Positions 34,070 to 59,304 of a stretch of 64,000 bases of DNA are shown here, piece by piece; the stretch's first letter is position 1, and each line of letters opens with the position of its first letter. The DNA lies in the IMG/VR virus record IMGVR_UViG_3300029309_000006, positions 31,753-95,752 of that record. The stretch is one strand, 5' to 3'. Position numbers and translations under genes: made by a program. A model generated the notes under the pieces. It was not told the DNA's origin and ran no database searches. It was given only the letters and a program-made list of their open reading frames with translations. Source of the DNA: a virus.

Positions 34070-37000
34070 ATGAGTTGCGAAGAACTAAAACAGATATACG
34101 GTGAAAATTCTACACAATACAGACAGTGTATTAATAACACCGAGGCTTTAAAAAATGCTGAGTTTACAGAAGAAGAACAAGGAATTTTAGACAACTATAA
34201 TGCTATATCTTTATCTGATGAAGATCAACAGGATATAATAGATGATTTAAAAAAATCAAAAGAAAAAATATTTAAAGAAGCTAGATATTATAAGCCTTTT
34301 GGCATTCCTTCAAGAGGTTATCAACCTTCTCTTAAGTCAAGAAGTGAATCACAATTAAAAAAGTTTTTTGAAAGCTCTGACTTAACTTATGAAGATTATT
34401 TAAAGTATCAAGACGACGGAACAATACCTAATCCTACAGAAGAAGATATATTAAAAGAGCAAAATATAAGAATAGAAAACAAACAAAGAGATTTTCTTGA
34501 AAATGTAGATAATAGTTCTAGAGAGATTATTTCACAAAAACAAAAAGCCCAACAAAAAATATTTGAAGAACAACAGTTAAAATTAGAAAAAGAAAAAAAT
34601 AATATAGCTGATGTAGATGAAAAAGGAAAATTAGTAGGTGGTGAAGTTTTTGAAATAGACAAAAAACTAAAAAACATGCAAGGCTTTATTGGTAATCAGT
34701 TTGATTCAAATAAAGTAGAGCCTACTGCTGTTTTTTATGAAAATTTTAATTCGTTAGTTAAACAAAGAAATGTTTTAGTTAATGAATATGAAAAAATAAG
34801 TAATAAACAAATACTAGATTTAGACGAAAACGCTTCAGCTAAACAAGCTATAGACGTTTGGCAAAGAAGCTACTCAAATGCTGACCAACTTATTCAAGCT
34901 GGGAAAGAAGCATTAAACAATATAAAGTTAGCCGGTATTGAGCTTGGAGAACTAATAACTCAAGCGTATAGAGGTGTGCCTGGCATAGTTGAATATTCTA
35001 CTAGATCAATAAACCCTGACGCTAAAAGTAGTAGTGGTGCTGTTAACTGGCTTAGAAGTCAACGAAACCAAACATTAGATACAGCAGAATATCTAAACAA
35101 TATAAGAGAAACAAAGCTGCCTAAAACTATAAAACTTGAAAATATAAATAATACAGATGATTTTATAAACTATAGTTTAGACGCTGTAATGAATAATATT
35201 CCAAATAGTGCTATGGCTTTTGCTGGGCCTGGTGTTGCTACAGCTTGGTTTACTTTATCAGGATTAGGAGATAAATCTAGTGATTTTGGTTTAGAAGAAA
35301 GAAAAATACAAACATTAAAAGAAAAAATACAAAAAGAATCTGATCCTTTTGAAAAAATGTATTTAGAAAAAGAATTAGAAGCTTATAATGATGCTATTAA
35401 CACTAATCAAATAACAAAGTTTTTAGCAGCGGTTGTTCATGGCGCGGCAGAGTCTATACCTGCTAGGATGTTTGGTACTATTAAAATAGCACAAGGAATT
35501 AAAGATGTATATAGGTATATTCCAAAACAACAGTTTAAAAAAGCTGGATTTGCGGTTGCTAATGCTTTTGGCAAAACACCTGTTTTAGAATCTGTAGAAG
35601 AAGGTTTTACTAACACGCTTCAAAATCTTAACGACATATATGTATTGAACAAAGATATAAGTATATTTGACAATTTAGATGAGTCTATGGTTCAAGGTCT
35701 TATAATAGGTAACGGTTTTTCTTTAATGCAGTCAGCTCCTAATGTTTACGGAGCTTTATTAAACGTAGCACAAACAAGACAAAACAAAAAAGAAATAAGA
35801 GCTAAAGTAAATGAATTAAATACTATTTTAGAAGATTACCAAACTGTTACAAGTCCTGATGGAAGAAAAGAATTAAGACTACAAGGTAATAGATTAGTTA
35901 AAGAAATAGTTTCCGATACAAATATAACATTGGAAAAGTTAACTAAACTAGATTATAACCAGTTAATTACTTTAGGAAATCTTGATAGACAATTAAGAGC
36001 TATAAACAAACAATATATAAAAGCTGTAAACTCTGGAATAAGTGATTCTTCTTTAAAAATAATAAAAAATAATTTAAAGACTGAGTTTGATAATATACAA
36101 AATCAAAAAGCTGAAATACTAGGTAAACAAACTAGAACAGATCAAAAACTTGAAAACTTAGACTATGCTTCTTCTCTAGTAAAAGGTAAACAAATATTAG
36201 GAGAAAATTTAGTTATAATAGATGATAATACTGATATAGATAAATTAGGTATAACTAAAGAACAAGCCGACTCACCAGGTTTTGTAAACGAAATAGATGG
36301 TAAAGTATATATTAATGAAAAAATAGCTTTAGACGAAGGAGGTAATATAAATGTTATTGCTCATGAAATATTACACAAGGTTTTAACAGACTATGTGTCA
36401 ACTGATCAAGGTGAGCAAGCAATAATAGATTTTTACAACAATTTAGATGAAGAAACTAAAGCTGCAATAGACAATGAATTAAAGTCTAGAGACTATATTG
36501 ATGAAAACACTCAAGACGTAATACAAGGATTAAAAAGTAAAAACGTTAGAATTGATGAAATACTAACTCAATATTTAGATTTAGTAGAAAATACAGACAA
36601 CAATATAGATATTAATGAAGGAACTTTAAGTAAAATTAAAGATTTTATAGCAAAATTTTTACAAGATTTAGGTTTCAAAGGTAAATTTTCTACTGCCGGT
36701 GACGTAAAAAGATTTTTAGTTGATTATAGAAAAAAATTTAAAAGTGGCGATTTACAAGTAAAAGGTAACAAAAGCGGTGAAGCTTTTTCAAGATCTGTTA
36801 AAAAAGGTGATATAAACACCCTAGCAACAGACATGGCAAGTAAAGGTTATGATAATTTAACTCAAGCTGAACAAACAAGTTTAAAAAATCAATACACAAG
36901 TGTTGCGTTAGCAGCTATTAAATTTGATGCGGGTAAAGGTACTGTAAACACACAAGATGCACAATCATTTGTAGATTCACAATTTGCTACAATAGCAAGA

Positions 37001-40000
37001 AACTACAGGCCTAGAGATCCTAGAACAAATAAAAAGCAAGATTTTACAACATACATATATAACACCGTAGGTAGAAGAGGTGCAGATTTATATGGTAAAC
37101 AAGAAGCTTTAGCTGAAGCAGGCCAAACTACAAGCTTAGATGATGAAAGAGCTAGACAAATTGCTGATCCTGGTTTAGATACAGAAACAACAAGTAAACA
37201 AGATGTTACGCCAACAATCGAAGTATTTGATTTTATAAAAAAATCAGATCCAAGTTTTGATAGTAAAAAGTTTGAAAAAGATTTTACGGATGGTGTGAAC
37301 GCTTTAGCTGCAGAAAAAAATATTGATTTATCTAATCCAGATTTAACACCTAAACAACGGATGGATGTTGTACCTTATAAAGTTTTAGCAGACGCAATAG
37401 GTATACCTGTAAATAAAATTACTAATCCTAAAGCTAATTTAAGCACTGCTGAAGCTAGGAAAGCTCAAAAAATATTATCAGCTGCAAAACCTTTTATTAA
37501 AAATGTGGTTTTAACAAAAGCTAATACAGACGTAACAAGTGTAGAATCAAAAACAAAAAGAGGTAAATCTGTAAAAATAGGTGGAGAAACATTAGGTTTA
37601 GGAACAAAAATATTAAATACATTTTTTAATCCACCTAAAAGATTAGGTAGTGGTAAAAAAGTTAGAACGCCTAAGCAGTTCGACAACAAATTGTTTAATG
37701 AAGCAATTGGTATAAAAAATGGCAAAGTAAGTCCTGATTTTAACGTTAGAAACTCTCAAATAATAAAAGGTTTATTAAAAGCTGTTGCTGAACAAATGAG
37801 CGGTAGAGCAACTAGTAGAACATTAGACGCTGGTCCTCAAGCTCAAGAAGTAAAACTTACTCAAGCACAATTAGACTCTATGAAAAGTCCATTAGTGTTT
37901 AGTAAAGCTCGATCAAATATAAAAACTAAAATACCTAAGTTTAAAAAAGATGCTGAAGGTAAAAAACAATATAAAGATTTTTTACAACAAAAGTTGTTTC
38001 CATTATTTCCAAAAAGCTTTTTCTTACAAGGAGGAGATAGTGCGTTGCAATTTTTAGAAAGTAAAGGACAATATTTTAGCAAAACAGAAATTGATAATAT
38101 TATAAAAGAACAAGGTAATAATTTTGGTAAACCTTTTCCTAAAGGCGTAAATCTTAAATATATTAATAAAAGATATAATCAAGTATTTCCACAAGGTTGG
38201 GATTCAATGGTAGAAATGCATAATTCAGGTGAATTAGCAAAAATGAATGATAGTAATGCTTTGTTAGGTAAGGCAATGTGGGATAGAATTTACAAATCAA
38301 TTAGAAACGCGGTTAATTCTGGTGATCAAAATTTTTTACAAGGATTACAAACTTATATGGCTGGTGTTGGAAGTATAGACAACCACCCATTAAAAATGAT
38401 AGCTCCAGTAGTAGGTGGAACATTTGGTTATCAAAAAGGAAAAGAAAACGTAACGTACGAACACGCTAGACCAGCGAGTGATACATATAATTTATTAATA
38501 AACGCAGCAATAGGTTATAAAAGTAAACAAAGTTTTGATAAAGTCTATGCTGAAGCAATTAAAAATTATAAAGTTATAGCTTTAGCGGAAGTTGATGGAG
38601 CTAAAGTTGATAAATTTTATAAAACAAAAATGCCTGATGGAGTTACTGAGTGGTTTAGAAGATATGCTAATCCAAAAGTAGCTACTGAAAATGGAGGTAT
38701 AGATGTAAATAATTTATATTTATTTAGTCAAGGTAAAGTTTTTTCTGATGCTTTTGGAATTGATTCTGCTGGTAAACCCTTAACTAATGAGGGTAAAGTA
38801 ATAGCTAAAGCTGCAACAAAAAAATATCAAACATTAGATAACGGAATAGTATTTTCTAAAAGTGTAAAAGGTAAAAAGGCTATAGAAAAAAGAAAACAAA
38901 ATGAACCTAAAGATTTAAGCAAAGACTTTAATAGTATAATACAAGAAAATAAAGGTATAAAAGCTGAAGCGGTATATTCTGAAATAGTAGCAAGAAGACA
39001 AGGTAGAGACAAAGGCAGATTTAAGTTTTTCTTACCACCAGGTGCTGAAGATTTTAAAGGATTAATATATACATTTTTAGGTAAAGGTAAAAAAGGTGAA
39101 AAACAATTTGAGTTTTTTGATAATAATTTAATTAAACCTTATTTACAAGGAGTTTCTCAAATAGAAACATTTAGAAGAACTTTAAAAGCTGATTATACAG
39201 CTTTGCTTAAACTAAGCCCAGAAGCTGCAGGAAAATTAAACACTAAAATAGCTAATACAGAATATAGCTTTGACCAAGCTGTTAGAGCTTATTTAATGAA
39301 TGAGTCAGGTTATAATTTAAAAGAGGCAGGTTTATCAGCAAGAGATGCTAAACTGTTGATAGATGCTATTAAAAACGATCCTACAATGGTTTCTTTTGCT
39401 CAAGGGCTGCAGCTAATAACAAAACAAGACACTTGGTTGTCGCCTAACGGAGGTTTTGACGTACAAACTATACAATCAGATCTACATCGTTTAACACAAG
39501 GTGCAGGTAGAAAAAAGTTTTTTGAAAACTCAGGCTTTATACCTAACTCTGAACAGATATTTAATAGAGATAATTTAAATAAAGTAGAAGCAGCTTACGG
39601 TTATAATGTAAAAGAAGCTATACAAGATATATTGTATCGTATGAAAAATGGTACAAACAGACCTTCTGGTTCTAGCAGGTTAACAAACTCTTTTAACAAC
39701 TGGGTAAATAGATCTATTGGAGCAATAATGTTTTTTAACAGAAAATCTGCATTATTACAAACAATATCAAGTATAAACTTTATAAACTGGAGTGACAACA
39801 ACCCTTTAAAAGCTGCTATAGCTTTTGGTAATCAGCCTCAATATTGGAAAGACTTTGCTACAATTTTTAATTCTGATAAATTAAAAGAAAGAAGAGCTGG
39901 TTTAAAAGGTGATATAAATGAAGCTGAGCTTGCTAGTGCTGTTAAAAATGCTACAAACAAAGCAGAAGCAGCACTATCTTGGTTGCTTAAAAAAGGTTTT

Positions 40001-41203
40001 TTACCAACACAAATGGCTGACAGTTTTGCTATAGCATCAGGTGGAGCTACTTTTTATAGAAACAGAATAAACACTTATAAAAAACAAGGGTTATCAGATG
40101 TTGAAGCAGAGAAAAAAGCTTTTGAAGATTTTTCAAGAATATCAGAAGAATCTCAGCAATCAGCAGATCCTTCAATGATTTCACCTCAACAAGCAAGTCC
40201 ACTTGGTAGATTAATATTAGCTTTTCAAAACACTCCAATGCAGTATACTAGACTTATGAAGCGTGCTGCGCAAGATTTAATAGCTGGAAGAGGTGATGCA
40301 AAAACCCATATAAGTAAAATAATTTATTATGGAGCTGTACAAAACTTTATGTTCTCTGCTTTACAAAATGCTTTATTTGCTTTAATACCAGGTTTTTCAG
40401 AAGAAAATCCAGAAGAAGAAGAAACAGATAAAGAAAAAGCAGCTCAAATAAAAAACGTAAGAATAATAAATAATATGGTTGACACTATATTAAGAGGTTC
40501 TGGGGTTTATGGAGCAATAGCGGCTACAGCAAAAAATACTATAGTTAAATATTATCAAAACGAACAAAAAGATCCTTTTGCAAAAGACAATGCTGATATA
40601 ATAATTGAAGCTATAAACTTGTCTCCTCCTATAGGTTCTAAAGTTAGAAAATTAAACAACGCTTTAAGAGCTAAAGAATTTGAAAAAGATGTAATAGAAG
40701 AAAGGGGATGGGAAATAACTAGAGATGGTAGAGTTAATTTAAGTCCTTCATATAGAGTTATAGGTTCTGCAGCAGAGGCTTTGCTTAACATACCTTTAGA
40801 AAGAACTATAGCAGAAATAGATGCTTTGACAGAAGTTACAGATTCAAGAAATAGTAATATGCAAAGAATAGCTTTAGCTTTAGGTTGGAGAACTTGGGAT
40901 CTTGGTGTAAGAAACGAAGAGTCAGATCAAATAAAACTTGAAGCAAAAGAAAGAAGAAAAACTGAAAGAGCAGAAGAAACAAAAAGAAAAAGAGAAGAAA
41001 AGAAAAGATTAGAAGAAGAAAAAAAGTTTGAAGGTTTATCTGATGCTCAAATAAATGCTTTAAAAAGAAGAGATCAAATAGAAAAGCTAACTAAAGCTCA
41101 GCAAGTTGATAGTTTAATAAAACTAGGTTTAAGCAAAAAAGATATTAGAGCTTTGCGTTTAGAAGAAGATAGAATAAATAAAATAATCGAACTTAACAAA
41201 TAA
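34070..41203 (+). CDS. Giant internal virion/DNA-ejection protein with zinc-peptidase motif
   Basis: The 2377-residue protein takes 7.1 kb. It has a helical charged N-terminus, a zincin motif HEILH (residues 765-769) within NVIAHEILHKVLTDY, and a long central region (TFGYQKGKENVTYEHARPAS). The C-terminal part includes FNRKSALLQTISSINFINW, then LILAFQNTPMQYTRLMKRAA followed by a hydrophobic stretch (FMFSALQNALFALIPGF). Similar giant proteins in marine podoviruses are thought to be ejected with DNA and to breach the cell wall. I see no RNA polymerase signature. The Lys/Glu-rich tail is coiled coil. Confidence 0.7.
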   Translation: MSCEELKQIYGENSTQYRQCINNTEALKNAEFTEEEQGILDNYNAISLSDEDQQDIIDDLKKSKEKIFKEARYYKPFGIPSRGYQPSLKSRSESQLKKFFESSDLTYEDYLKYQDDGTIPNPTEEDILKEQNIRIENKQRDFLENVDNSSREIISQKQKAQQKIFEEQQLKLEKEKNNIADVDEKGKLVGGEVFEIDKKLKNMQGFIGNQFDSNKVEPTAVFYENFNSLVKQRNVLVNEYEKISNKQILDLDENASAKQAIDVWQRSYSNADQLIQAGKEALNNIKLAGIELGELITQAYRGVPGIVEYSTRSINPDAKSSSGAVNWLRSQRNQTLDTAEYLNNIRETKLPKTIKLENINNTDDFINYSLDAVMNNIPNSAMAFAGPGVATAWFTLSGLGDKSSDFGLEERKIQTLKEKIQKESDPFEKMYLEKELEAYNDAINTNQITKFLAAVVHGAAESIPARMFGTIKIAQGIKDVYRYIPKQQFKKAGFAVANAFGKTPVLESVEEGFTNTLQNLNDIYVLNKDISIFDNLDESMVQGLIIGNGFSLMQSAPNVYGALLNVAQTRQNKKEIRAKVNELNTILEDYQTVTSPDGRKELRLQGNRLVKEIVSDTNITLEKLTKLDYNQLITLGNLDRQLRAINKQYIKAVNSGISDSSLKIIKNNLKTEFDNIQNQKAEILGKQTRTDQKLENLDYASSLVKGKQILGENLVIIDDNTDIDKLGITKEQADSPGFVNEIDGKVYINEKIALDEGGNINVIAHEILHKVLTDYVSTDQGEQAIIDFYNNLDEETKAAIDNELKSRDYIDENTQDVIQGLKSKNVRIDEILTQYLDLVENTDNNIDINEGTLSKIKDFIAKFLQDLGFKGKFSTAGDVKRFLVDYRKKFKSGDLQVKGNKSGEAFSRSVKKGDINTLATDMASKGYDNLTQAEQTSLKNQYTSVALAAIKFDAGKGTVNTQDAQSFVDSQFATIARNYRPRDPRTNKKQDFTTYIYNTVGRRGADLYGKQEALAEAGQTTSLDDERARQIADPGLDTETTSKQDVTPTIEVFDFIKKSDPSFDSKKFEKDFTDGVNALAAEKNIDLSNPDLTPKQRMDVVPYKVLADAIGIPVNKITNPKANLSTAEARKAQKILSAAKPFIKNVVLTKANTDVTSVESKTKRGKSVKIGGETLGLGTKILNTFFNPPKRLGSGKKVRTPKQFDNKLFNEAIGIKNGKVSPDFNVRNSQIIKGLLKAVAEQMSGRATSRTLDAGPQAQEVKLTQAQLDSMKSPLVFSKARSNIKTKIPKFKKDAEGKKQYKDFLQQKLFPLFPKSFFLQGGDSALQFLESKGQYFSKTEIDNIIKEQGNNFGKPFPKGVNLKYINKRYNQVFPQGWDSMVEMHNSGELAKMNDSNALLGKAMWDRIYKSIRNAVNSGDQNFLQGLQTYMAGVGSIDNHPLKMIAPVVGGTFGYQKGKENVTYEHARPASDTYNLLINAAIGYKSKQSFDKVYAEAIKNYKVIALAEVDGAKVDKFYKTKMPDGVTEWFRRYANPKVATENGGIDVNNLYLFSQGKVFSDAFGIDSAGKPLTNEGKVIAKAATKKYQTLDNGIVFSKSVKGKKAIEKRKQNEPKDLSKDFNSIIQENKGIKAEAVYSEIVARRQGRDKGRFKFFLPPGAEDFKGLIYTFLGKGKKGEKQFEFFDNNLIKPYLQGVSQIETFRRTLKADYTALLKLSPEAAGKLNTKIANTEYSFDQAVRAYLMNESGYNLKEAGLSARDAKLLIDAIKNDPTMVSFAQGLQLITKQDTWLSPNGGFDVQTIQSDLHRLTQGAGRKKFFENSGFIPNSEQIFNRDNLNKVEAAYGYNVKEAIQDILYRMKNGTNRPSGSSRLTNSFNNWVNRSIGAIMFFNRKSALLQTISSINFINWSDNNPLKAAIAFGNQPQYWKDFATIFNSDKLKERRAGLKGDINEAELASAVKNATNKAEAALSWLLKKGFLPTQMADSFAIASGGATFYRNRINTYKKQGLSDVEAEKKAFEDFSRISEESQQSADPSMISPQQASPLGRLILAFQNTPMQYTRLMKRAAQDLIAGRGDAKTHISKIIYYGAVQNFMFSALQNALFALIPGFSEENPEEEETDKEKAAQIKNVRIINNMVDTILRGSGVYGAIAATAKNTIVKYYQNEQKDPFAKDNADIIIEAINLSPPIGSKVRKLNNALRAKEFEKDVIEERGWEITRDGRVNLSPSYRVIGSAAEALLNIPLERTIAEIDALTEVTDSRNSNMQRIALALGWRTWDLGVRNEESDQIKLEAKERRKTERAEETKRKREEKKRLEEEKKFEGLSDAQINALKRRDQIEKLTKAQQVDSLIKLGLSKKDIRALRLEEDRINKIIELNK

Positions 41204-52170: not shown

Positions 52171-52932
52171 CTACAGATAGTCAAGCACTTGCGAGTGATC
52201 AACACTATCAATTAGTTTATCTACAGCTTGTTTTTTAAGCTCTGAAACACGTACATAAGCACTGCTTCCCTCTATGTTTAAGATTTCTGCTATTCTGTTT
52301 GCTGAATGTTTTTCACAGTCTAAACCATAGCTTAATCTTAAAACTTGATATTCTCGTTCATTAAGATGTTTCTTTAATAAACCAGTTAAATAAATATTTA
52401 ATAACGCAATATTATATGGCTCAGATTTATCTGCTATTTGATATATCATATTCTCTTCATCATCATTGTTTTTAGGTTTATCATCAATAGATAAAAACAT
52501 ACTATTAAAAAACATTGCAACCATCTTTTGATCTTTACCATTGTTCTTACGTATTTCGTTTAGCTTATGCTCTGGTATTCTCATATCACCTCTATTAATA
52601 TCAATACCTCTTCTAATACCTCCTTTAATTCGTTTTGATAAGAAAGATTTTAATGTTTTTTCTTTGTCGTCTGAGTTGTTTAATTTAATCCAATCAATTC
52701 GATCTATAGCTTTAACAAGACTTAAATTACCTTCTTGCATTAAATCCATTATAGACATAACGCCTGAAGCCTGTTGACTTGTTGAAAATTTTCTAGCTAT
52801 ATTTTCTACTAAAGGCAAAAACTTATAAGTAAGCTCTTTGTTACTATACTCTGCTAAAGGTTTTTCCTTAGGTTGATTAGCTATTACGTCATTTTTATAA
52901 CGTACATAGTTTTTAATATTATATTTCTTCAT
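52171..52932 (-). CDS. Phage-encoded sigma-70-family RNA polymerase sigma factor
   Basis: 253 residues. Region 2: MDLMQEGNLSLVKAIDRIDW and FLSKRIKGGIRRGID, which bind core polymerase and the -10 element. Region 4: LNEREYQVLRLSYGLD and NRIAEILNIEGSSAYVRV with a helix-turn-helix for the upstream element. No region 1.1. It likely redirects host RNA polymerase to phage promoters. The targets are unknown; the late plus-strand genes or the six early motifs are candidates. Confidence 0.88.
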   Translation of the reverse strand: MKKYNIKNYVRYKNDVIANQPKEKPLAEYSNKELTYKFLPLVENIARKFSTSQQASGVMSIMDLMQEGNLSLVKAIDRIDWIKLNNSDDKEKTLKSFLSKRIKGGIRRGIDINRGDMRIPEHKLNEIRKNNGKDQKMVAMFFNSMFLSIDDKPKNNDDEENMIYQIADKSEPYNIALLNIYLTGLLKKHLNEREYQVLRLSYGLDCEKHSANRIAEILNIEGSSAYVRVSELKKQAVDKLIDSVDHSQVLDYL

Positions 52933-53554
52933 TTAATATTTGTTTTTCTTGTTTTAAAGCGTCGCACATATGTCTATGTATAGTTCTTGTAGAGCAATTA
53001 AGCAAGCTAGCAATTGATTTAATTGTTATTTTTTTGTTATAATAATTTAAGTCAATCATAGCATTATATATGTCTGATTTACCCATGCTAGATCTTCCTA
53101 TTAGCTTACCTACAATACTTAGTTTTTCATTTAAGCTTAATCCACAATATGGTTTAAATACTACTTTACGTAGCTTGTTTGCAGGTGGGTCACCACCTTG
53201 ATTAAACACATCTTCTATCATATCATTTAATGTTTTTTGTTGTATAAAGAAAGTTACAAAACCATTTTCTTTATTTGCTATAAACTTAAAAACACTTCTC
53301 ATGTCATCTTTTATTGAAACATAATCATACTCAACACCATCCCTGTTTAAATAATATAAAACAAGCATGTGCCACTTTAAAGATTTATATGTAGTTATCT
53401 TAGCTTTGCTATTAAACAAATGATAACATTGATACGTACCTTTTTCGTAGTATTTGTATTGTTCTGTTTCAACAGTAGGTTTGTCAGTGTCTGGGTCTTG
53501 CCTGTACACAACTCGCCTGTCGTTTAACCATTTTATATTTCTTTCATATGACAT
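52919..53554 (-). CDS. Putative DNA-binding regulator with C-terminal helix-turn-helix
   Basis: 211 residues. The C-terminus (KKITIKSIASLLNCSTRTIH RHM, about residues 170-200) is a clear helix-turn-helix of the type used in replication initiators and transcription factors. The rest is Tyr-rich and basic with no known domain. It overlaps the start of the sigma gene, so the two are co-expressed. It may control the early-to-middle switch. Confidence 0.65.
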   Translation of the reverse strand: MSYERNIKWLNDRRVVYRQDPDTDKPTVETEQYKYYEKGTYQCYHLFNSKAKITTYKSLKWHMLVLYYLNRDGVEYDYVSIKDDMRSVFKFIANKENGFVTFFIQQKTLNDMIEDVFNQGGDPPANKLRKVVFKPYCGLSLNEKLSIVGKLIGRSSMGKSDIYNAMIDLNYYNKKITIKSIASLLNCSTRTIHRHMCDALKQEKQILNEEI

Positions 53555-53926: not shown

Positions 53927-54365
53927 TTTTATTACAAATTTTTCGTTTATCAATAATATAATATCGCCAGTAACCGTGTATAGCATTTTGGCGTTTATGT
54001 TCTTCCGGCATACACTGCGGAGGTTGTTTAAATTTTTTGGTCGGCATACCAGATGGTGGTCTGAGTAATGGTTCAGCACATTTAGTTATAGATAAATGAT
54101 GCTTTCCATAACGTTTAGTATACTCATCGCCTAAAGCTAGCATATGTAAGTATAACCAGTAGTAATGATGAGTATTCTCACGCACCCATATTGTAGACGG
54201 ATGGTTTAAATGCGCCTGTTTATAAGGTACATTATGACCGTTGTCATACGCATGGTGTGCTGTACACAACATCTGGGCCGACTCTAATATCATTTTTACC
54301 TTGTGCTTGTCATATACATAACTTGCAGCAAGATAAGGGTCTTCATGTAAATAAAATATATTCAT
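53847..54365 (-). CDS. Conserved phage protein of the DEDPYLAAxY type
   Basis: 172 residues starting MNIFYLHEDPYLAASYVYDKH, with VKMILESAQMLCTAHHAYD, HPSTIWVRENTHHYYWLY and a C-terminal YWRYYIIDKRK. This conserved family is widespread in tailed phages and is sometimes annotated as a DNA-repair glycosylase; I cannot confirm that. The abundance of His, Tyr and Trp suggests a ligand- or metal-binding fold. It is next to DNA ligase. Confidence 0.6.
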   Translation of the reverse strand: MNIFYLHEDPYLAASYVYDKHKVKMILESAQMLCTAHHAYDNGHNVPYKQAHLNHPSTIWVRENTHHYYWLYLHMLALGDEYTKRYGKHHLSITKCAEPLLRPPSGMPTKKFKQPPQCMPEEHKRQNAIHGYWRYYIIDKRKICNKNETPYEFNTVPIDVLDRYYNGICGTG

Positions 54366-55198
54366 TATTCGTAATTTCTAATACATTTAAACAATGGGTG
54401 TCTGTAACTACCTGCATTTGTTCTTTGAAAATAAGTAAACGTAGCTCGTTGACCCATATATTTATTAATGTTTTTAAGCATATTAGCTAGATCTTTGTAG
54501 TTGTAACCTTTACCAGGTGGACAACCAAACTTGTTACCGTCGTCGTCTTGCATTAAGAACTTACCGAGAGTACCTAGACGTTTACCTTTACCTAGTTCAT
54601 AACCAACTATTGTAGCTTCAGAATCAGAAAAGTCTTTAAACTTCATAAGATCATAAGATCTACCGTGTTTGTATAAACCATCTAGCCTTATAATAGAACC
54701 TTCATAACCTTTTTTTAAGTTTATATTATGTAATGCTCTAGCTTCGTCGTAAAATCTAACTTTATTTGTTTTAACATATTTTATATAAGTACCATATATA
54801 TCAGAACAAGCTAGTTGATCTTGTCTTGTACCATAAGAGTCATACATTACTCCATCGAAGTAATCATAACAATGAAATTGTACAAGATGTTGAGCATCTA
54901 TTCTATCAGTATCAGTAGGCTTTTGCTTACGAACTAATGATATAATTTTTTCAAAGTCATTTTTAAGTTTGTGATTATATAATTCACCATCTAATATAAC
55001 GTCAGGTTGTTGATCGAAAAATGGTTTAAGAGCCATTTCAATATGTCTTAAGTTCATAAATTGTTTACCGGAACGAGAATACGCGCCATTTTTAGTAAAC
55101 AGACAGCGAACGCCATCTAATTTAGGTTGTATGTATACAGGTTGAGACCAGTCTACACGGCTATCGTCATACTTGTGAGCTAACATTGGTTTATTCAT
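54365..55198 (-). CDS. ATP-dependent DNA ligase
   Basis: 277 residues with nucleotidyltransferase motifs in order: motif I QPKLDGVR with nucleophile Lys26, motif III HCYDYFDG, motif IV EGSIIRLDG, and motif V DLMKFKDF. A short OB-type C-terminal domain follows. It is similar in size to T7 ligase (~359) but shorter. It seals nicks after replication and recombination. Its stop touches the next gene. Confidence 0.9.
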   Translation of the reverse strand: MNKPMLAHKYDDSRVDWSQPVYIQPKLDGVRCLFTKNGAYSRSGKQFMNLRHIEMALKPFFDQQPDVILDGELYNHKLKNDFEKIISLVRKQKPTDTDRIDAQHLVQFHCYDYFDGVMYDSYGTRQDQLACSDIYGTYIKYVKTNKVRFYDEARALHNINLKKGYEGSIIRLDGLYKHGRSYDLMKFKDFSDSEATIVGYELGKGKRLGTLGKFLMQDDDGNKFGCPPGKGYNYKDLANMLKNINKYMGQRATFTYFQRTNAGSYRHPLFKCIRNYE

Positions 55199-55430
55199 TT
55201 TCTAATCTTTTTTCTATTCGTTTAATTTTTTTTAATATTATAGCAGCTTTACGATACTCTTCTTGATCTTCGAGCATTAGTAATACTGTATTTAATCTTG
55301 CTAGTTCAGATATTAATATTTCTTCTTGATTAGCAAGAAAGTTTAAAGGACTAATGTCACCGTATTTTTCTATTATTCTAGCTATTACTAAATCTACTAG
55401 CTTGTCTATACGCGGGTCTTTTTCTCTCAT
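55191..55430 (-). CDS. Small helical protein
   Basis: The 79-residue charged helical protein (DKLVDLVIARIIEKYG, VLLMLEDQEEYRKAAIILKK) overlaps the ligase start by 8 bases. It is coiled-coil-like. No family is recognised. Confidence 0.5.
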   Translation of the reverse strand: MREKDPRIDKLVDLVIARIIEKYGDISPLNFLANQEEILISELARLNTVLLMLEDQEEYRKAAIILKKIKRIEKRLENE

Positions 55431-55582
55431 AAATATTCATTTAGTTTTTTAGGATTTTGTAAGAAGTATTTAATTTCCCATTGTTTATCTTCTAGCTCTT
55501 CAATCCTAACTAATAATTCTTTAAGTGTATAAGACTCACCATCTCTGTGAGATTTAACTTTTATTTCATTTATATTATCCAT
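55427..55582 (-). CDS. Small coiled-coil protein (51 aa)
   Basis: The frame runs MDNINEIKVKSHRDGESYTL ... FLQNPKKLNEYL and its stop overlaps the next start (ATGA). Helical, with heptads in LLVRIEELEDKQW. The gene is preceded by a copy of the early three-block motif. Function unknown. Confidence 0.55.
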   Translation of the reverse strand: MDNINEIKVKSHRDGESYTLKELLVRIEELEDKQWEIKYFLQNPKKLNEYL

Positions 55583-55606
55583 TTGTTATCGTATTTAGTC
55601 TGTATA
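55572..55606 (-). promoter_or_regulatory. Early three-block motif, copy F
   Basis: TATACAGAC, AATACGA, GATAATAT with 23-base spacing. The first block holds the end of the gene at 55595 and the last block falls inside the first codons of the gene at 55427-55582. Confidence 0.65.
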
Positions 55607-56071
55607 ACTTTGTGTACTTCTTAAACCGCTATATTCACATCTAGTTTCACCTTTAGCAAAATCAGTATAATCCATATCATCTTTATATCTTTGAATTACT
55701 TTATAAGGTTCTAATACAAATACATTTCTATTTCTGTAATTATCCCAACAGCTAATCCATATATCAGGTTTACCTGTCCATATAATATAAGCATAATCAT
55801 GTTCAATATTTTTTATATTTGAATATAAGTAGCAACTGTCATAGTACATATCACGCACTAACTTTGCTGCCAATGCACTACCATCTTGTCTAGCATTAAC
55901 TTTACACCAGTTTGCTAACTGTACACCTTGCCACTGTGGATAACCATCATGATGTAAATACATATTTACATAGCTTTTGTCACTTACACATCTGGGTTCT
56001 GCAGCAAAACCTAACTGGTTTTTTTCTGCATATTTTCGGTCTACGACCATTGTTATGTTTCTTGTTGCCAT
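55595..56071 (-). CDS. Conserved phage protein, HHDGYPxWxG type
   Basis: 158 residues, Tyr/Trp/Asp-rich, with NMYLHHDGYPQWQGVQLANW and DYAYIIWTGKPDIWISCW. A similar HxDGYP pattern occurs in other phage proteins of unknown role. Soluble, no catalytic motif. Its last codons overlap the early motif copy at 55572-55606. Confidence 0.55.
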   Translation of the reverse strand: MATRNITMVVDRKYAEKNQLGFAAEPRCVSDKSYVNMYLHHDGYPQWQGVQLANWCKVNARQDGSALAAKLVRDMYYDSCYLYSNIKNIEHDYAYIIWTGKPDIWISCWDNYRNRNVFVLEPYKVIQRYKDDMDYTDFAKGETRCEYSGLRSTQSYTD

Positions 56072-56072
56072 T

Positions 56073-56303
56073 TTAAAAATATTTAGTAAATCCGTTATCT
56101 GTCTCTATCAGTTTAGCTATGTAATTCCATATCTTTAATTCTTTTTTAGCTCTATCAAGAACACCTTGATGTTGTTCTATTGTTATGAAAGGCGACAGTG
56201 TGCCTGTTTTTAATTCTTGCTTTAATCTGCTAATGTCATTATTGCACGACATTATATTAGCAAAAGCTTTATCGTGTGCGCTGTTTTTTATTTCTGTTTC
56301 CAT
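56073..56303 (-). CDS. Small helical protein
   Basis: The 76-residue soluble protein (DISRLKQELKTGTLSPFITI) is followed after one base by the next gene. Typical of small early phage proteins. No family is recognised. Confidence 0.5.
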   Translation of the reverse strand: METEIKNSAHDKAFANIMSCNNDISRLKQELKTGTLSPFITIEQHQGVLDRAKKELKIWNYIAKLIETDNGFTKYF

Positions 56304-56304
56304 A

Positions 56305-56562
56305 TTAATCTATTAAATAAGCATTACCGTATAGTACTTCACTAGCTGACATATTGTTTATATGATGCGCACCGCCTGGCCATGTGCTTATATTACAATA
56401 AATGTTAACTTTTTGAACATCATCTACTTTAAGATCAGACCATGAAGTTTTAGACATAAGAGTATATTTAAGTCTTTTAGCACTTGAATAATCTTTAGCA
56501 GATTTGTTTAATATTTTTTTAAGTTCTGGCTTTAGCCTTTCGTAAACTGTTTTTATTTTCAT
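56305..56562 (-). CDS. Small early protein
   Basis: The 85-residue protein contains RLKPELKKILNKSAKDYSSA and a C-terminal STWPGGAHHINNMSASEVLY. It is preceded by an early motif copy and the TAATAATAATATG leader. Function unknown. Confidence 0.5.
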   Translation of the reverse strand: MKIKTVYERLKPELKKILNKSAKDYSSAKRLKYTLMSKTSWSDLKVDDVQKVNIYCNISTWPGGAHHINNMSASEVLYGNAYLID

Positions 56563-56566
56563 ATTA

Positions 56567-56602
56567 TTATTATCTTATAATTATTGTATTAAGTCTGTAA
56601 TT
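56567..56602 (-). promoter_or_regulatory. Early three-block motif, copy E, adjoining the tmRNA-like RNA
   Basis: ATTACAGAC, AATACAA, GATAATAA with 24-base spacing. It begins directly after the tRNA-like 3' end and leads into the gene at 56305-56562. Confidence 0.72.
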
Positions 56603-56924
56603 AGTGGACGTGGCAGGAATCGAACCTGCGTCCAAGTTAGTGTGACGCAATATGTAATACACTTCCGTACGCTCGCTTATATCCGTCGATAGTCGGCACC
56701 ACATACATATATTGTCTCCTATTTCTTGTCTACCCTATTTCACGCCCTTATGAGAGGTAGAAGTTGTGGACTGGTAGTTAACTAGTATTGTCATTTATCC
56801 ACACTTTCTGTTTTGTAAGCACTAGCTCAATCGCCCGACATCTTACTAACGTGACCAGTATGCCGCCACCTCTCTGTCAGCTATTCACTTATGTAGTGGA
56901 CTTACGCAATTTAAATGCCACCCT
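56603..56924 (-). ncRNA. tmRNA-like structured RNA with a tRNA T arm
   Basis: No open frame fills this stretch of 346 bases. Read on the minus strand, its 3' end has GGAC before a perfect T arm (stem GCAGG/CCTGC, loop TTCGATT, 56614-56630) and then CACGTCC-A, as in tmRNA. A unique perfect 7-bp partner for that acceptor strand, GGGCGTG, lies at 56742-56748, followed by AGGGTAGAC resembling the tmRNA D-loop. Upstream, nested helices pair 56869-56875 with 56753-56759, 56855-56860 with 56771-56776, and 56843-56847 with 56816-56820. No convincing tag peptide ending in Ala-Ala is found and the 5' end is unclear. CCA is not encoded. Confidence 0.5.
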
Positions 56925-56948
56925 AATTAAGCTACTCGTCTGACTCTG

Positions 56949-57137
56949 TTACTTTCTACGCCAAGATTTGTGAACTGCTTCACTTAGTTCTTGACTTACT
57001 ATTTGTACTTCTAAAACCTGTTTATTTGCTATGATAGGTATATAACTGTATTGTTTAGTTGTGCTACATTTTACACAGGTTCTATAACCTAGTTTTATTC
57101 TACCATCAGGTATTATATTGTTACATTTACATCTCAT
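56949..57137 (-). CDS. Small zinc-ribbon-like protein
   Basis: Start chosen at ATG 57137 (MRCKCNNIIPDG), 62 residues; it follows the early motif copy at 57142-57176. CxC near the start and CVKC later make a plausible four-Cys zinc site. The remaining part is beta then helical. Small phage zinc ribbons often inhibit or redirect host polymerase, but nothing proves that here. Confidence 0.6.
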   Translation of the reverse strand: MRCKCNNIIPDGRIKLGYRTCVKCSTTKQYSYIPIIANKQVLEVQIVSQELSEAVHKSWRRK

Positions 57138-57141
57138 ATAT

Positions 57142-57176
57142 ATATTATCGATTCTTATTTGTATTTTGTCTGTAAA
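57142..57176 (-). promoter_or_regulatory. Early three-block motif, copy D
   Basis: TTTACAGAC, AATACAA, GATAATAT with 23-base spacing. It lies within the last codons of the gene at 57145 and immediately before the zinc-ribbon gene. Confidence 0.75.
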
Positions 57177-57339
57177 GTATTTCAATTGCTTTATCCATTA
57201 CGTGACTGTGTAATGCGTTGTAGTTATCGCCTTCAACTGGTTGATCTGCTATCTGCCACTCTACTGAGTCATACATTATTTCTTTTACGTGATCTGCTAC
57301 ACCTTGTGCTATTAGATCTATTTCCTTCATTTTACTCAT
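57145..57339 (-). CDS. Small early protein
   Basis: The 64-residue helical protein contains IDLIAQGVADHVKEIM. Its last ten residues (LYRQNTNKNR) are encoded by the early motif copy that precedes the next gene. Function unknown. Confidence 0.5.
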   Translation of the reverse strand: MSKMKEIDLIAQGVADHVKEIMYDSVEWQIADQPVEGDNYNALHSHVMDKAIEILYRQNTNKNR

Positions 57340-57523
57340 AACTTTTATCTATTTCTAATCCTAATTCGTTTGCTACATAGTTTATATGTGTTTGAGTTGT
57401 TACACTCCACCAACCATGCTGTATTAGCTTGTCTTGGTGTATCGTTGCGACTTTAGTACTATATGAGTATATATCATCGCCAATTTGTCTTAAATTTACT
57501 TTATATTTATCAAATGTTCTCAT
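57332..57523 (-). CDS. Small conserved early protein
   Basis: The 63-residue protein contains IYSYSTKVATIHQDKLIQHG and WSVTTQTHINYVANELGL, a short pattern common in marine phages. Function unknown. It overlaps both neighbours. Confidence 0.55.
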   Translation of the reverse strand: MRTFDKYKVNLRQIGDDIYSYSTKVATIHQDKLIQHGWWSVTTQTHINYVANELGLEIDKSYE

Positions 57524-57638
57524 TATCTTTATATTTTTCGTATTCTTTTTGTGTTACCCACTTATCTATGTCTGATATAAATACCATTCCATCTCTAAAT
57601 ATTAATCCGTTAAAATTGCCTTCTTGTAAAAATCTCAT
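57510..57638 (-). CDS. Small early protein (42 aa)
   Basis: The frame MRFLQEGNFNGLIFRDGMVF ... EYEKYKDNENI overlaps the next gene by 14 bases. Beta then helix; no family is recognised. The tight packing supports it as a gene. Confidence 0.45.
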   Translation of the reverse strand: MRFLQEGNFNGLIFRDGMVFISDIDKWVTQKEYEKYKDNENI

Positions 57639-57865
57639 AGTTTCATTGTTTTTAAGTCATATTTCTCGTCATATCCTCGCCACATTTTATTGTATGTGAA
57701 CTTTTTAAACTTAGCAAATGTTGCTTTTTGAGATACTTTGTACCTTGTGTTACCCATACCTTTACACTCACCGTATATTTTTGCTACCTCATAATGCTGG
57801 TGAGCTTGTTTTTTCCTTTTATTTGCTACATACTCTAGCAATTCTTTCATATTATTTACTTTCAT
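57635..57865 (-). CDS. Small basic early protein
   Basis: The 76-residue Lys-rich protein (LEYVANKRKKQAHQHYEVAK, FAKFKKFTYNKMWRG) is coupled to the upstream gene by an ATGA overlap. Possible nucleic-acid binder; function unknown. Confidence 0.5.
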   Translation of the reverse strand: MKVNNMKELLEYVANKRKKQAHQHYEVAKIYGECKGMGNTRYKVSQKATFAKFKKFTYNKMWRGYDEKYDLKTMKL

Positions 57866-58092
57866 AAGTCAAATAGTCTTAATATTGATTCACCTAACTT
57901 TAAATCTTCATACTTTAGGTCATCACCGTATTCACATAAGAAATCATCTAGTGATACAATACTTAAACCTCCGTATTTTATATTCATTGAGATTACATAG
58001 TTTTTAGCAATTTCTTGGTATATATCTTCAGTGTTTACTAAAGAATCTTCAAATCTTTTTAATTGTTCTTTATTCATATTACTACATTTCAT
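57862..58092 (-). CDS. Small acidic early protein
   Basis: The 76-residue acidic protein (FEDSLVNTEDIYQEIAKNYV) is preceded by an early motif copy at 58099-58133. The start may be the second Met (MNKEQ). Function unknown. Confidence 0.5.
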   Translation of the reverse strand: MKCSNMNKEQLKRFEDSLVNTEDIYQEIAKNYVISMNIKYGGLSIVSLDDFLCEYGDDLKYEDLKLGESILRLFDL

Positions 58093-58098
58093 ATATTA

Positions 58099-58133
58099 TT
58101 ATTATCTTACTTTTGTTGTATTTTGTCTGTATT
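58099..58133 (-). promoter_or_regulatory. Early three-block motif, copy C
   Basis: AATACAGAC, AATACAA, GATAATAA with 23-base spacing, just before the gene at 57862-58092. Confidence 0.75.
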
Positions 58134-58428
58134 AATCTGCATGTAAAGTACCATACTTTTCCATAAATTCTTGCTCTGCTTTATCATACATCGCTTGATC
58201 TTTAAGTTTCTGTGTTTTATTATCTATATAGTCATCTATTTTATAACACATTTCAGTAATATTTTGTGCACCAAATGACACTGTGTTTAAACCTTTTAGT
58301 AATGTAGTATCATTACACTGATAACCGTTTGCTTGTTTACCATCGTAAGTAATCCACTCTTTGTAGTAGAATTTTATACCTCTGTAGTCGATAGTGTTCT
58401 CGTCGATTGGATTTATTTTGTTTTTCAT
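58132..58428 (-). CDS. Hypothetical early protein
   Basis: The 98-residue soluble protein (IKFYYKEWITYDGKQANGYQ, KDQAMYDKAEQEFMEKYG) is preceded by an early motif copy and the TAATAATAATATG leader. No family is recognised. Confidence 0.5.
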   Translation of the reverse strand: MKNKINPIDENTIDYRGIKFYYKEWITYDGKQANGYQCNDTTLLKGLNTVSFGAQNITEMCYKIDDYIDNKTQKLKDQAMYDKAEQEFMEKYGTLHAD

Positions 58429-58432
58429 ATTA

Positions 58433-58467
58433 TTATTATCTTTACTTATTTGTATTTAGTTTGTAAA
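58433..58467 (-). promoter_or_regulatory. Early three-block motif, copy B
   Basis: TTTACAAAC, AATACAA, GATAATAA with the same 23-base spacing. It leads directly into the start codon of the gene at 58132-58428 (TAATAATAATATG). Confidence 0.75.
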
Positions 58468-58624
58468 TTATGTACATTAGCGCAAGAGTGTTTACAATTC
58501 CGAGTGCTAATGGTAGAATATCTTGTGCTATATTATGCCAGTAAAGTTCATGGTGATGTACTGCATCGATTGCTTCTTGTATTTTTAATTTAAGTTGTAT
58601 TTCTTCCATAGTAAATGTTTCCAT
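58442..58624 (-). CDS. Small membrane early protein
   Basis: The 60-residue protein has an amphipathic N-terminal helix rich in Glu and His (IDAVHHHELYWHNI) and a C-terminal membrane helix (ILPLALGIVNTLALMYIIY). It could act at the host membrane early in infection. Its end abuts an early motif copy. Confidence 0.5.
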   Translation of the reverse strand: METFTMEEIQLKLKIQEAIDAVHHHELYWHNIAQDILPLALGIVNTLALMYIIYKLNTNK

Positions 58625-58709
58625 ATTGTAGGTGTATATTAGTTTATGTGTTTTAAAGTGTTTAAAGGTACTGCGCGAATGAGCGCAATATGAAATAAAA
58701 AGTTAGTTA

Positions 58710-58937
58710 TTACACCAACTCTTTATCTCGTAATATTACTGGTATGTTATTAGTAGCAGTATATGACTTGTATTTTAAGAAACACGCCATGTTTTCTAGT
58801 GTATTCTTCATAATGTTATACGCTTTGTCATGATTATATACATGTTTGATACCTTTTTTATTTGTAAATTCTATTGTTATATTTTTACCGATTAGTGATT
58901 TTCTTATTACAAATCTTTTTGAAATTAAATTACTCAT
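58710..58937 (-). CDS. Small early protein, first gene of the minus-strand block
   Basis: The 75-residue basic protein (LISKRFVIRKSLIGKNITIE) is expected to be among the first genes expressed, since it lies next to the divergent intergenic region and behind the outermost motif copy. Function unknown. Between it and the next gene is a GC-rich hairpin, TGCGC/GCGCA, near 58671-58686. Confidence 0.5.
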   Translation of the reverse strand: MSNLISKRFVIRKSLIGKNITIEFTNKKGIKHVYNHDKAYNIMKNTLENMACFLKYKSYTATNNIPVILRDKELV

Positions 58938-59304
58938 ATTATTATTATTTTATTATTAGTTATACTTACATTTATATTATCTACATGTAATTGTATTATG
59001 TCTGTAAAAAAGTCAAAAGTTTTATATAAAATTTATAAAAAAAGGGCCCCGTAGTGTAAAAATAATTGATTTTTTGTAACTGGCTGATAGTCAAATAGTT
59101 ATGTACAGTACTTTAATTCCCTATAATCAACAGTAAAACTGTGACATTAGCTATTAATAGTATATAAGTAAGGGGCTTTTGTCACACTATTGTAAATATA
59201 CTTATTTTTACGTAAGTAAACCTTAGCAAAAACGTGTAATATTAACTAGCATAGCGCGCTTCACAAGAGTCCGCAAAAGAATAATGCAAAAATAAAAAGA
59301 AAAA
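58938..59304. other. Divergent intergenic region (367 bases), candidate control region/origin
   Basis: No gene is seen. It separates the minus-strand early genes from plus-strand fibre genes. It holds motif copy A, a palindrome TTACGTAA near 59208, a small inverted repeat ACAGT/ACTGT near 59130, a GGGCCCC run near 59044 and long A/T tracts. Promoters for both directions must lie here; an origin of replication is possible but not shown. Confidence 0.5.
58974..59008 (-). promoter_or_regulatory. Early three-block motif, copy A
   Basis: On the minus strand TTTACAGAC, then AATACAA, then GATAATAT, with 23 bases between TTTACA and TAATAT. It is the outermost copy, upstream of the gene at 58710-58937. 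Confidence 0.75.

What the first reader, a model, noticed from the sequence alone, without database searches (positions are those of the whole stretch)
55572..59008. Three-block motif repeated six times before early minus-strand genes with fixed 23-24 base spacing
Six sites, all in the direction of the genes they precede, share TTTACAGAC, then AATACAA at a fixed distance, then GATAATA(A/T), with 23 bases (24 in one) between block 1 and block 3. In several the last block runs straight into the start codon, so any transcript would be leaderless or nearly so. It matches neither the Bacteroidetes TTTG/TAnnTTTG promoter nor a standard -35/-10 pair (spacer too long). It is either a new promoter or operator type, or an RNA-level start signal, and two copies overlap the coding ends of the upstream genes.
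Basis: partly seen in the sequence, partly recalled or inferred. Interest (0 to 1): 0.8.

Follow-up and report, generated by a model that had tools for sequence, protein, structure and literature searches.

The report
Early promoter family of uncultured phages
The six repeated motifs are start sites for copying DNA into RNA, placed in front of a phage's first genes and found at the same fixed spacing in about a hundred related, mostly uncultured phage contigs; they do not resemble the known promoters of the presumed host bacteria and are probably read by a sigma factor that the phage itself encodes.

Summary
Six minus-strand sites fit T(A)CARAC-NN-AATACRA-N9-GATAATA with identical spacing in all six (0.01 expected by chance). 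The gap between TTTACAGAC and GATAATA is 18 nt in every site, not 23-24.

The motif is family-wide. Relatives found through the phage's sigma-factor and ligase genes gave 612 distinct sites in 112 loci. A search with blocks 1+2 alone found 251 distinct sites on the gene strand and 2 on the other; GATAAT lies exactly 25 nt on in 245 of 251. Twelve nt after the G of GATAAT the base is a purine in 98% of 437 non-redundant sites. That fixes a predicted +1: block 3 is a -10 element (-12 to -7), block 1 sits at -37 to -31, block 2 at -28 to -22. At about 16% of sites, three of the six here, the A of ATG is the predicted +1 (leaderless). Otherwise the distance to the start codon varies, against an RNA-level signal.

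The motif fits no flavobacterial sigma motif; no virion RNA polymerase was found; every motif-bearing contig covering the region encodes a conserved 253-aa sigma factor. One complete relative has the sigma but no detectable motif.

The parts
58975..59008 (-). Site 1: block 1 59000-59008 (TTTACAGAC), block 2 58991-58998, block 3 GATAATA 58975-58981; predicted +1 at 58969; first promoter of the early cluster, 32-nt leader before ATG 58937
58434..58467 (-). Site 2: TTTACAAAC...AAATACAA...GATAATA; predicted +1 58428 is the A of the ATG (leaderless) of the 98-aa ORF 58132-58428; overlaps the end of ORF 58442-58624
58100..58133 (-). Site 3: AATACAGAC...AAATACAA...GATAATA; predicted +1 58094, ATG at 58092 (2-nt leader) of the 76-aa ORF 57862-58092; overlaps the stop of ORF 58132-58428 by 2 bases
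57143..57176 (-). Site 4: TTTACAGAC...AAATACAA...GATAATA; predicted +1 57137 is the A of the ATG (leaderless) of a 62-aa ORF ending at 56949; overlaps the end of ORF 57145-57339
56568..56601 (-). Site 5: ATTACAGAC...TAATACAA...GATAATA; predicted +1 56562 is the A of the ATG (leaderless) of the 85-aa ORF 56305-56562; begins directly after a tmRNA-like RNA
55573..55606 (-). Site 6: TATACAGAC...AAATACGA...GATAATA; predicted +1 55567; no ATG-, GTG- or TTG-started ORF of 40 aa or more begins within 140 nt of block 3; the next long ORF starts at 55430 (79 aa), followed by DNA ligase; overlaps the end of ORF 55595-56071
52171..52932 (-). Phage sigma factor, 253 aa: sigma-70 regions 2 to 3.0 (residues about 27-138) and region 4 (about 168-240); candidate reader of the sites
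52919..53554 (-). Conserved 211-aa protein with C-terminal helix-turn-helix, beside the sigma gene; missing from several motif-bearing relatives, so not needed for the motif
54365..55198 (-). ATP-dependent DNA ligase; used to fetch relatives; marks the end of the site-bearing early region (422 of 435 sites lie upstream of it)

Best explanation
The six sites are promoters of the phage's early genes: small unknown ORFs that precede ligase, sigma factor, exonuclease, primase-helicase and ribonucleotide reductase. Block 3 (GATAAT, -12 to -7) is the melted -10 element. Block 1 (TACARAC, -37 to -31) stands where a -35 element stands. Block 2 (AATACRA, -28 to -22) is a third contact in a 19-bp spacer, one DNA turn from block 1, and the two share a TACA/TACR core 11 bp apart. 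Transcription starts at a purine 12 nt after the G of GATAAT, leaderless at some sites and with a 5' leader of up to about 60 nt at most others. Shown by sequence statistics: the element, its strand, its spacing, the +1 signature and the early location. Inferred: host core RNA polymerase initiates there carrying the phage-encoded sigma factor (region 2 on block 3, region 4 on block 1). How the first sigma molecules arise (carried in the virion, or from a weak host-read start) is open.
For: Promoter: six sites against 0.01 expected. Blocks 1+2 alone: 251 against 2 by strand, GATAAT exactly +25 in 245 of 251. Purine at +1 in 428 of 437 non-redundant sites, against 30-77% at nearby non-core positions, and still 97.6% when leaderless sites are removed. 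Start-codon distance peaks at exactly 12 nt (97 of 594) with a broad tail. 422 of 435 sites lie upstream of the ligase gene. Phage sigma as reader: all ligase relatives (50% identity or more) whose contig covers the region encode it; ligase relatives at about 40% have neither sigma nor motif; six sequenced relatives lack both. The most divergent sigma (51%) accompanies a drifted motif of the same shape, TGCAGAT-ATAACGA-TATAATA. Blocks 1/2 drift between phages while the architecture stays. Sigma columns covary with variable positions of blocks 1/2 more than ligase columns do at most positions (clade-confounded). Flavobacterial promoter maps show TAnnTTTG, sigma-54, TAnnTTGY and ECF-type CGT motifs, not this one (PMC9723704, PMC6847099). 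No DxDxD or T7-type polymerase found.
Against: A complete 64.6-kb relative (L186/G023) has the sigma and the same terminase but no detectable motif; a 47-kb fragment (L215/G024) likewise. Two very different region-4 recognition helices (GSSxYVRVS and VSTAHVRIS types) go with the same TACAAAC block. Invariant R107 (at the -12-reading position of sigma-70) does not track the -12 base: L309 keeps R107 but has T at -12. The sigma gene lies downstream of the sites it would read, so something must start the cascade. No transcript data exist.
Confidence: 0.62

Rival explanations
1. The sites are early promoters read by host RNA polymerase with a host sigma factor (an unmapped alternative sigma, or sigma-A with relaxed recognition); the phage sigma serves middle or late genes, as in phiEco32-like phages.
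For: They precede the first genes, which the sigma-encoding phages phiEco32 and 7-11 leave to host promoters (PMC4331800). The sigma gene lies downstream of the sites. At least one complete relative has the sigma without the motif.
Against: GATAATAW lacks four of the six near-invariant bases of the flavobacterial -7 box (T-12, T-8, T-6, G-5; PMC6847099). None of six mapped F. psychrophilum motifs resembles it (PMC9723704). Sequenced Bacteroidota phages of related families lack the motif.
Confidence: 0.22
2. [quoted passage not shown]
For: The phage shares a muzzle domain with Crassvirales and has a giant protein of 2377 aa in its structural region. P23-45 shows that a virion polymerase can read an AT-rich motif before pre-early genes (PMC10770324).
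Against: No conserved DxDxD motif in long ORFs of ten related records. The giant proteins share HExxH- and HAD-like motifs but no polymerase hit in the PDB search. No PF00940 match (a weak negative). Block 3, spacing and +1 look like a sigma-70-type promoter.
Confidence: 0.09
3. Blocks 1 and 2 are an operator or activator site (11-bp direct repeat) placed at the -35 position, bound by a phage DNA-binding protein such as the 211-aa helix-turn-helix protein; only block 3 is contacted by sigma.
For: TACA/TACR repeat with 11-bp period; block 3 is more constant than blocks 1/2. Block 1 is TCGAAA in six contigs that lack the helix-turn-helix gene.
Against: Two other contigs without that gene keep TACAAAC (L225, L244). 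Its predicted fold has no significant PDB match. No other candidate protein was found.
Confidence: 0.15
4. An RNA-level start or processing signal, or a translation-start-associated sequence.
For: In about 16% of sites the ATG follows the G of block 3 at a fixed 12 nt.
Against: In the rest the distance to the start codon varies widely while the motif is unchanged. The +1 purine signature is present in sites without an ATG there. The conserved part lies upstream of the predicted transcript.
Confidence: 0.03

Closest known systems
Phage-sigma promoters of phiEco32 and phage 7-11
   Same: A phage encodes its own sigma-70-family factor and carries several copies of a phage-specific promoter; structural and functional genes lie on opposite strands (PMC4331800).
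   Different: Theirs are short extended -10 motifs (such as TAATGTATA) before middle and late genes, with early genes on host promoters. Here the motif has three blocks with a -35-position element and lies almost only before the earliest genes; reading by the sigma is untested.
AT-rich pre-early promoters of Thermus phage P23-45
   Same: A strongly conserved AT-rich motif before the first phage genes, conserved in relatives.
   Different: Read by a virion RNA polymerase fused to the tape measure protein (PMC10770324); no such polymerase was found here.
Early genes of crAss-like phage phi14:2 (virion RNA polymerase gp66)
   Same: Related phage group infecting flavobacteria, with early functional genes transcribed first (PMC10136315).
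   Different: No DxDxD polymerase found in this phage family. The original phi14:2 paper was not available here, so any promoter motif it reports could not be compared.
Flavobacterial sigma-A promoters (TTTG / TAnnTTTG)
   Same: Same probable host group; -10-type box at -12 to -5.
   Different: Four of six near-invariant box bases differ; no TTTG at -33; three-block structure.
T4 middle promoters and pho-box promoters (from memory, not tested)
   Same: A -10 element combined with an activator site at or overlapping the -35 position; the pho box also has an 11-bp direct repeat.
   Different: No activator identified here that is always present.

Membership tests
Bacteroidota sigma-A promoter | -7 box TAnnTTTG at -12 to -5 | tested here: not met
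   GATAATAW at -12 to -5; T-12, T-8, T-6 and G-5 all differ
Bacteroidota sigma-A promoter | TTTG at -33 with TAnnTTTG 18-22 nt on | tested here: not met
   0 pairs in 500 nt upstream of 59 first sites, either strand; none in the early minus-strand region of the window
Standard sigma-70 promoter | -10 hexamer TATAAT 6-7 nt before a purine +1 | tested here: met
   GATAAT, 5 of 6 bases, purine at +1 in 98% of non-redundant sites; -12 is G instead of T
Standard sigma-70 promoter | -35 TTGACA with a 16-18 bp spacer | tested here: not met
   TACARA at the -35 position, 19-bp spacer, extra conserved block in the spacer
Promoter of a phage-encoded sigma factor (phiEco32 type) | Phage genome encodes a sigma-70-family protein | tested here: met
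   Window 52171-52932; regions 2 and 4 matched
Promoter of a phage-encoded sigma factor (phiEco32 type) | Motif and sigma gene occur together | tested here: inconclusive
   No motif without sigma where the region is covered; six related genomes lack both; but G023 (complete) and G024 (47-kb fragment) have the sigma without a detectable motif
Promoter of a phage-encoded sigma factor (phiEco32 type) | Sigma directs initiation at the motif | not testable with these tools
   Needs in vitro transcription; covariation is only suggestive
Promoter of a phage-encoded sigma factor (phiEco32 type) | Promoters lie before middle and late genes | tested here: not met
   422 of 435 sites lie upstream of ligase in the early cluster
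crAss-like virion RNA polymerase early promoter | Genome encodes a DxDxD double-barrel RNA polymerase | tested here: not met
   No conserved DxDxD in long ORFs of the window phage and nine related records; pattern search only, records may be incomplete
T7-like or N4-like RNA polymerase promoter | Genome encodes a single-subunit RNA polymerase (PF00940) | tested here: inconclusive
   No match in ten records, but the search rang in no control either
Leaderless mRNA start | 5' end at the A of AUG | tested here: inconclusive
   Predicted for 3 of 6 sites here and about 16% family-wide; 5' ends not mapped

The most novel reading that the evidence does not exclude
The phage delivers its own sigma factor with its DNA, so that even its first genes are expressed only from phage-specific three-block promoters, several with leaderless mRNAs. 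Block 2 would then be a third sigma or co-factor contact inside the spacer.
Probability: 0.18. Interest if true: 0.8.

Novelty: new variant of a known kind. Interest (0 to 1): 0.6.

Why it matters
It gives a ready-made map of predicted early transcription starts for a large, almost uncultured aquatic phage family, from sequence alone. It suggests that these phages do not use the unusual host promoter code for their first genes. The set of naturally drifted motif variants with matching sigma sequences makes the reader of the motif directly testable, and could supply a promoter and sigma pair independent of the host for flavobacterial genetics. It also offers a set of candidate leaderless mRNAs in a phylum where these are reported to be a minority (5.5% in F. 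psychrophilum, PMC9723704).

Tried and rejected
- First pattern used 10 instead of 9 Ns and found nothing; corrected.
- crAss-type virion polymerase: no DxDxD; giant proteins align to no polymerase in the PDB.
- T7-like polymerase: no match, weak negative.
- Helix-turn-helix neighbour as the necessary reader: rejected, absent in motif-bearing contigs including two with the standard TACAAAC block.
- R107 reads -12 G: attractive from the sigma-70 alignment (R107 at the T440 position, invariant in 111 sigmas) but L309 keeps R107 with T at -12; dropped.
- Simple one-to-one match of the region-4 recognition helix with block 1: not seen.
- Host-like TTTG/TAnnTTTG in divergent or early regions: not enriched.
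- L188 first looked like an exception; it carries a drifted copy, CACAACC-NN-GTAACGA-N9-GATAATA.
- Literature: no paper on this motif found; the phi14:2 polymerase paper is not in the library.
Full report
WHERE IT IS. The window is the last 64,000 bases of a 95,752-base IMG/VR virus record. From about 0.4 kb on, the window carries one phage of roughly 64 kb: terminase, portal and structural proteins on the plus strand; small unknown genes, ligase, sigma factor, exonuclease, primase-helicase, MazG and ribonucleotide reductase on the minus strand. By terminase its nearest named relatives are MW202828 (64%), the Flavobacterium elemo phages (45%), Maribacter phage Panino, Cellulophaga phages and Tenacibaculum phage Gundel_1. 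A muzzle-protein domain links it to crAss-like phages. Bacterial-genome hits for its sigma factor fall in uncultured bins, among them Lewinella, Saprospiraceae and Flavobacteriaceae but also Aliivibrio, Halieaceae and Ilumatobacteraceae bins; a Bacteroidota host is likely but not shown.

THE OBSERVATION. The corrected pattern TACAGACNNAATACAA-N9-GATAATA finds exactly six sites in the window with at most one mismatch, all on the minus strand, against 0.01 expected. Spacing is the same in all six. They lie in the first 3.5 kb of the minus-strand cluster. Four overlap the end of the preceding ORF. In three the ATG begins exactly 12 nt after the G of GATAATA; in a fourth, 2 nt later.

FAMILY-WIDE CONSERVATION. 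Nine other viral contigs contain exact matches, and each contig's sites lie on one strand. Fetching relatives through the sigma factor (73 loci) and the ligase (80 loci) and scanning them with a weight matrix gave typically five to thirteen sites in loci that reach far enough upstream, all but one on the gene strand. Together these give 612 distinct sites in 112 loci. To avoid circularity I searched with blocks 1 and 2 alone: 251 distinct sites on the gene strand, 2 on the other, and GATAAT exactly 25 nt from the start of block 1 in 245 of the 251. Of 435 sites in loci where position can be judged, 422 lie upstream of the ligase gene, 8 between ligase and sigma, 5 after sigma. A 5.2-Mb bacterial bin gave seven matches at 2-3 mismatches and none at 0-1, while single phage contigs of 43-61 kb gave 7 and 13, most at 0-1.

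WHY IT IS A PROMOTER. Counting the first base of TACA as 0, position 37 is a purine in 428 of 437 non-redundant sites (A 59%, G 39%); nearby positions outside the core are 30-77% purine. Leaving out leaderless sites, it is still 97.6% purine with 45% G in a region that otherwise has few G. If 37 is +1, GATAAT covers -12 to -7, the usual place of a -10 element, and TACARAC covers -37 to -31, the usual place of a -35 element. The start codon is at +1 in 97 of 594 sites and otherwise spread out, mostly up to about 60 nt. A translation or RNA-processing signal would not behave so. The middle block lies one helical turn from block 1 and repeats its TACA core (from the sequence).

WHO READS IT. Every ligase-bearing relative (50% identity or more) whose contig covers the region encodes the 253-aa sigma factor; ligase relatives at about 40% have neither sigma nor motif. 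Six sequenced relatives lack both. The protein is a sigma-70-family factor by Pfam, by profile search of the PDB and by fold (the fold model is of moderate confidence, pLDDT 75, pTM 0.46). The most divergent sigma-bearing contig, L309 (51% identity), has its own repeated three-block motif at the same spacing, TGCAGAT-N3-TAACGA-N9-TATAATA. Other lineages show TCGAAA, TGCAGA, CACGGA or ATATAAGTTT in place of TACAAAC with block 3 unchanged. Sigma columns covary with variable positions of blocks 1/2 more strongly than ligase columns do at most positions, but few independent changes underlie this. Flavobacterial promoter maps contain no such motif (PMC9723704, PMC6847099).

WHAT SPEAKS AGAINST. One complete relative (G023) and one 47-kb fragment (G024) have sigma and terminase but no detectable motif, so the sigma must have other work or the motif has drifted beyond recognition there. 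Different region-4 helices accompany the same block 1. The idea that invariant R107 explains G at -12 fails on L309. The helix-turn-helix neighbour is dispensable. If the sigma reads these sites, its first supply must come from the virion or from an unseen start. I therefore put about 0.93 on 'early promoter with +1 as predicted' and about 0.6 on 'read by the phage sigma'. These two figures are judgements, not computed.

COMPARISON. The nearest described kind is the promoter of a phage-encoded sigma factor (phiEco32, phage 7-11; PMC4331800). It works like that but is not shown to be a member: the sigma dependence is untested and the position before the earliest genes differs. P23-45 pre-early promoters look similar in layout but are read by a virion polymerase (PMC10770324), for which I found no counterpart here. 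Novelty: new variant of a known kind.

Noticed in passing
window 56602-56747 (-): A tmRNA-like RNA (Rfam RF00023, 45.2 bits, E 9e-17, just under the gathering score of 47), only 146 nt long, directly upstream of site 5. At least one relative (L046) has an ordinary tRNA directly before a motif site in its early region.
   Followed up: partly
G000 bases 1 to about 31,900 (L010, L011): The first third of the record carries a second, unrelated terminase and portal and a tape-measure-like protein, with few matches to the relatives: probably two phages joined in one assembly.
   Followed up: partly
L144 (MW202828 43000-60850): The nearest named relative lacks sigma and three-block motif but has about 16 copies of the 16-bp palindrome GTGTCGTTAACGACAC (most of them exact), several of them shortly before start codons of its early genes: another gene-start-linked repeat of unknown function.
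   Followed up: no
window 59139-59187: Inverted repeat TGTGACA...TGTCACA upstream of site 1. Similar TGTGACATTAG...CTAATGTC elements occur in L184/L186, and TGACAT repeats lie before the first site in L212, L229, L237 and L238.
   Followed up: no
G004 (L048 2276-3025 and L051): One relative encodes two sigma-factor paralogues (54% and 57% identical to the window's).
   Followed up: no
window 34070-41203 (+): Giant 2377-aa protein with HEFLH (metalloprotease-like) and, in relatives, FDFDxTL (HAD-like) motifs; no family match; possibly a multi-domain protein injected with the DNA.
   Followed up: partly
L197, L237, L238, L243, L257, L258: In these contigs the helix-turn-helix gene next to sigma is missing and block 1 reads TCGAA or TCGAAA instead of TACAAA.
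   Followed up: partly
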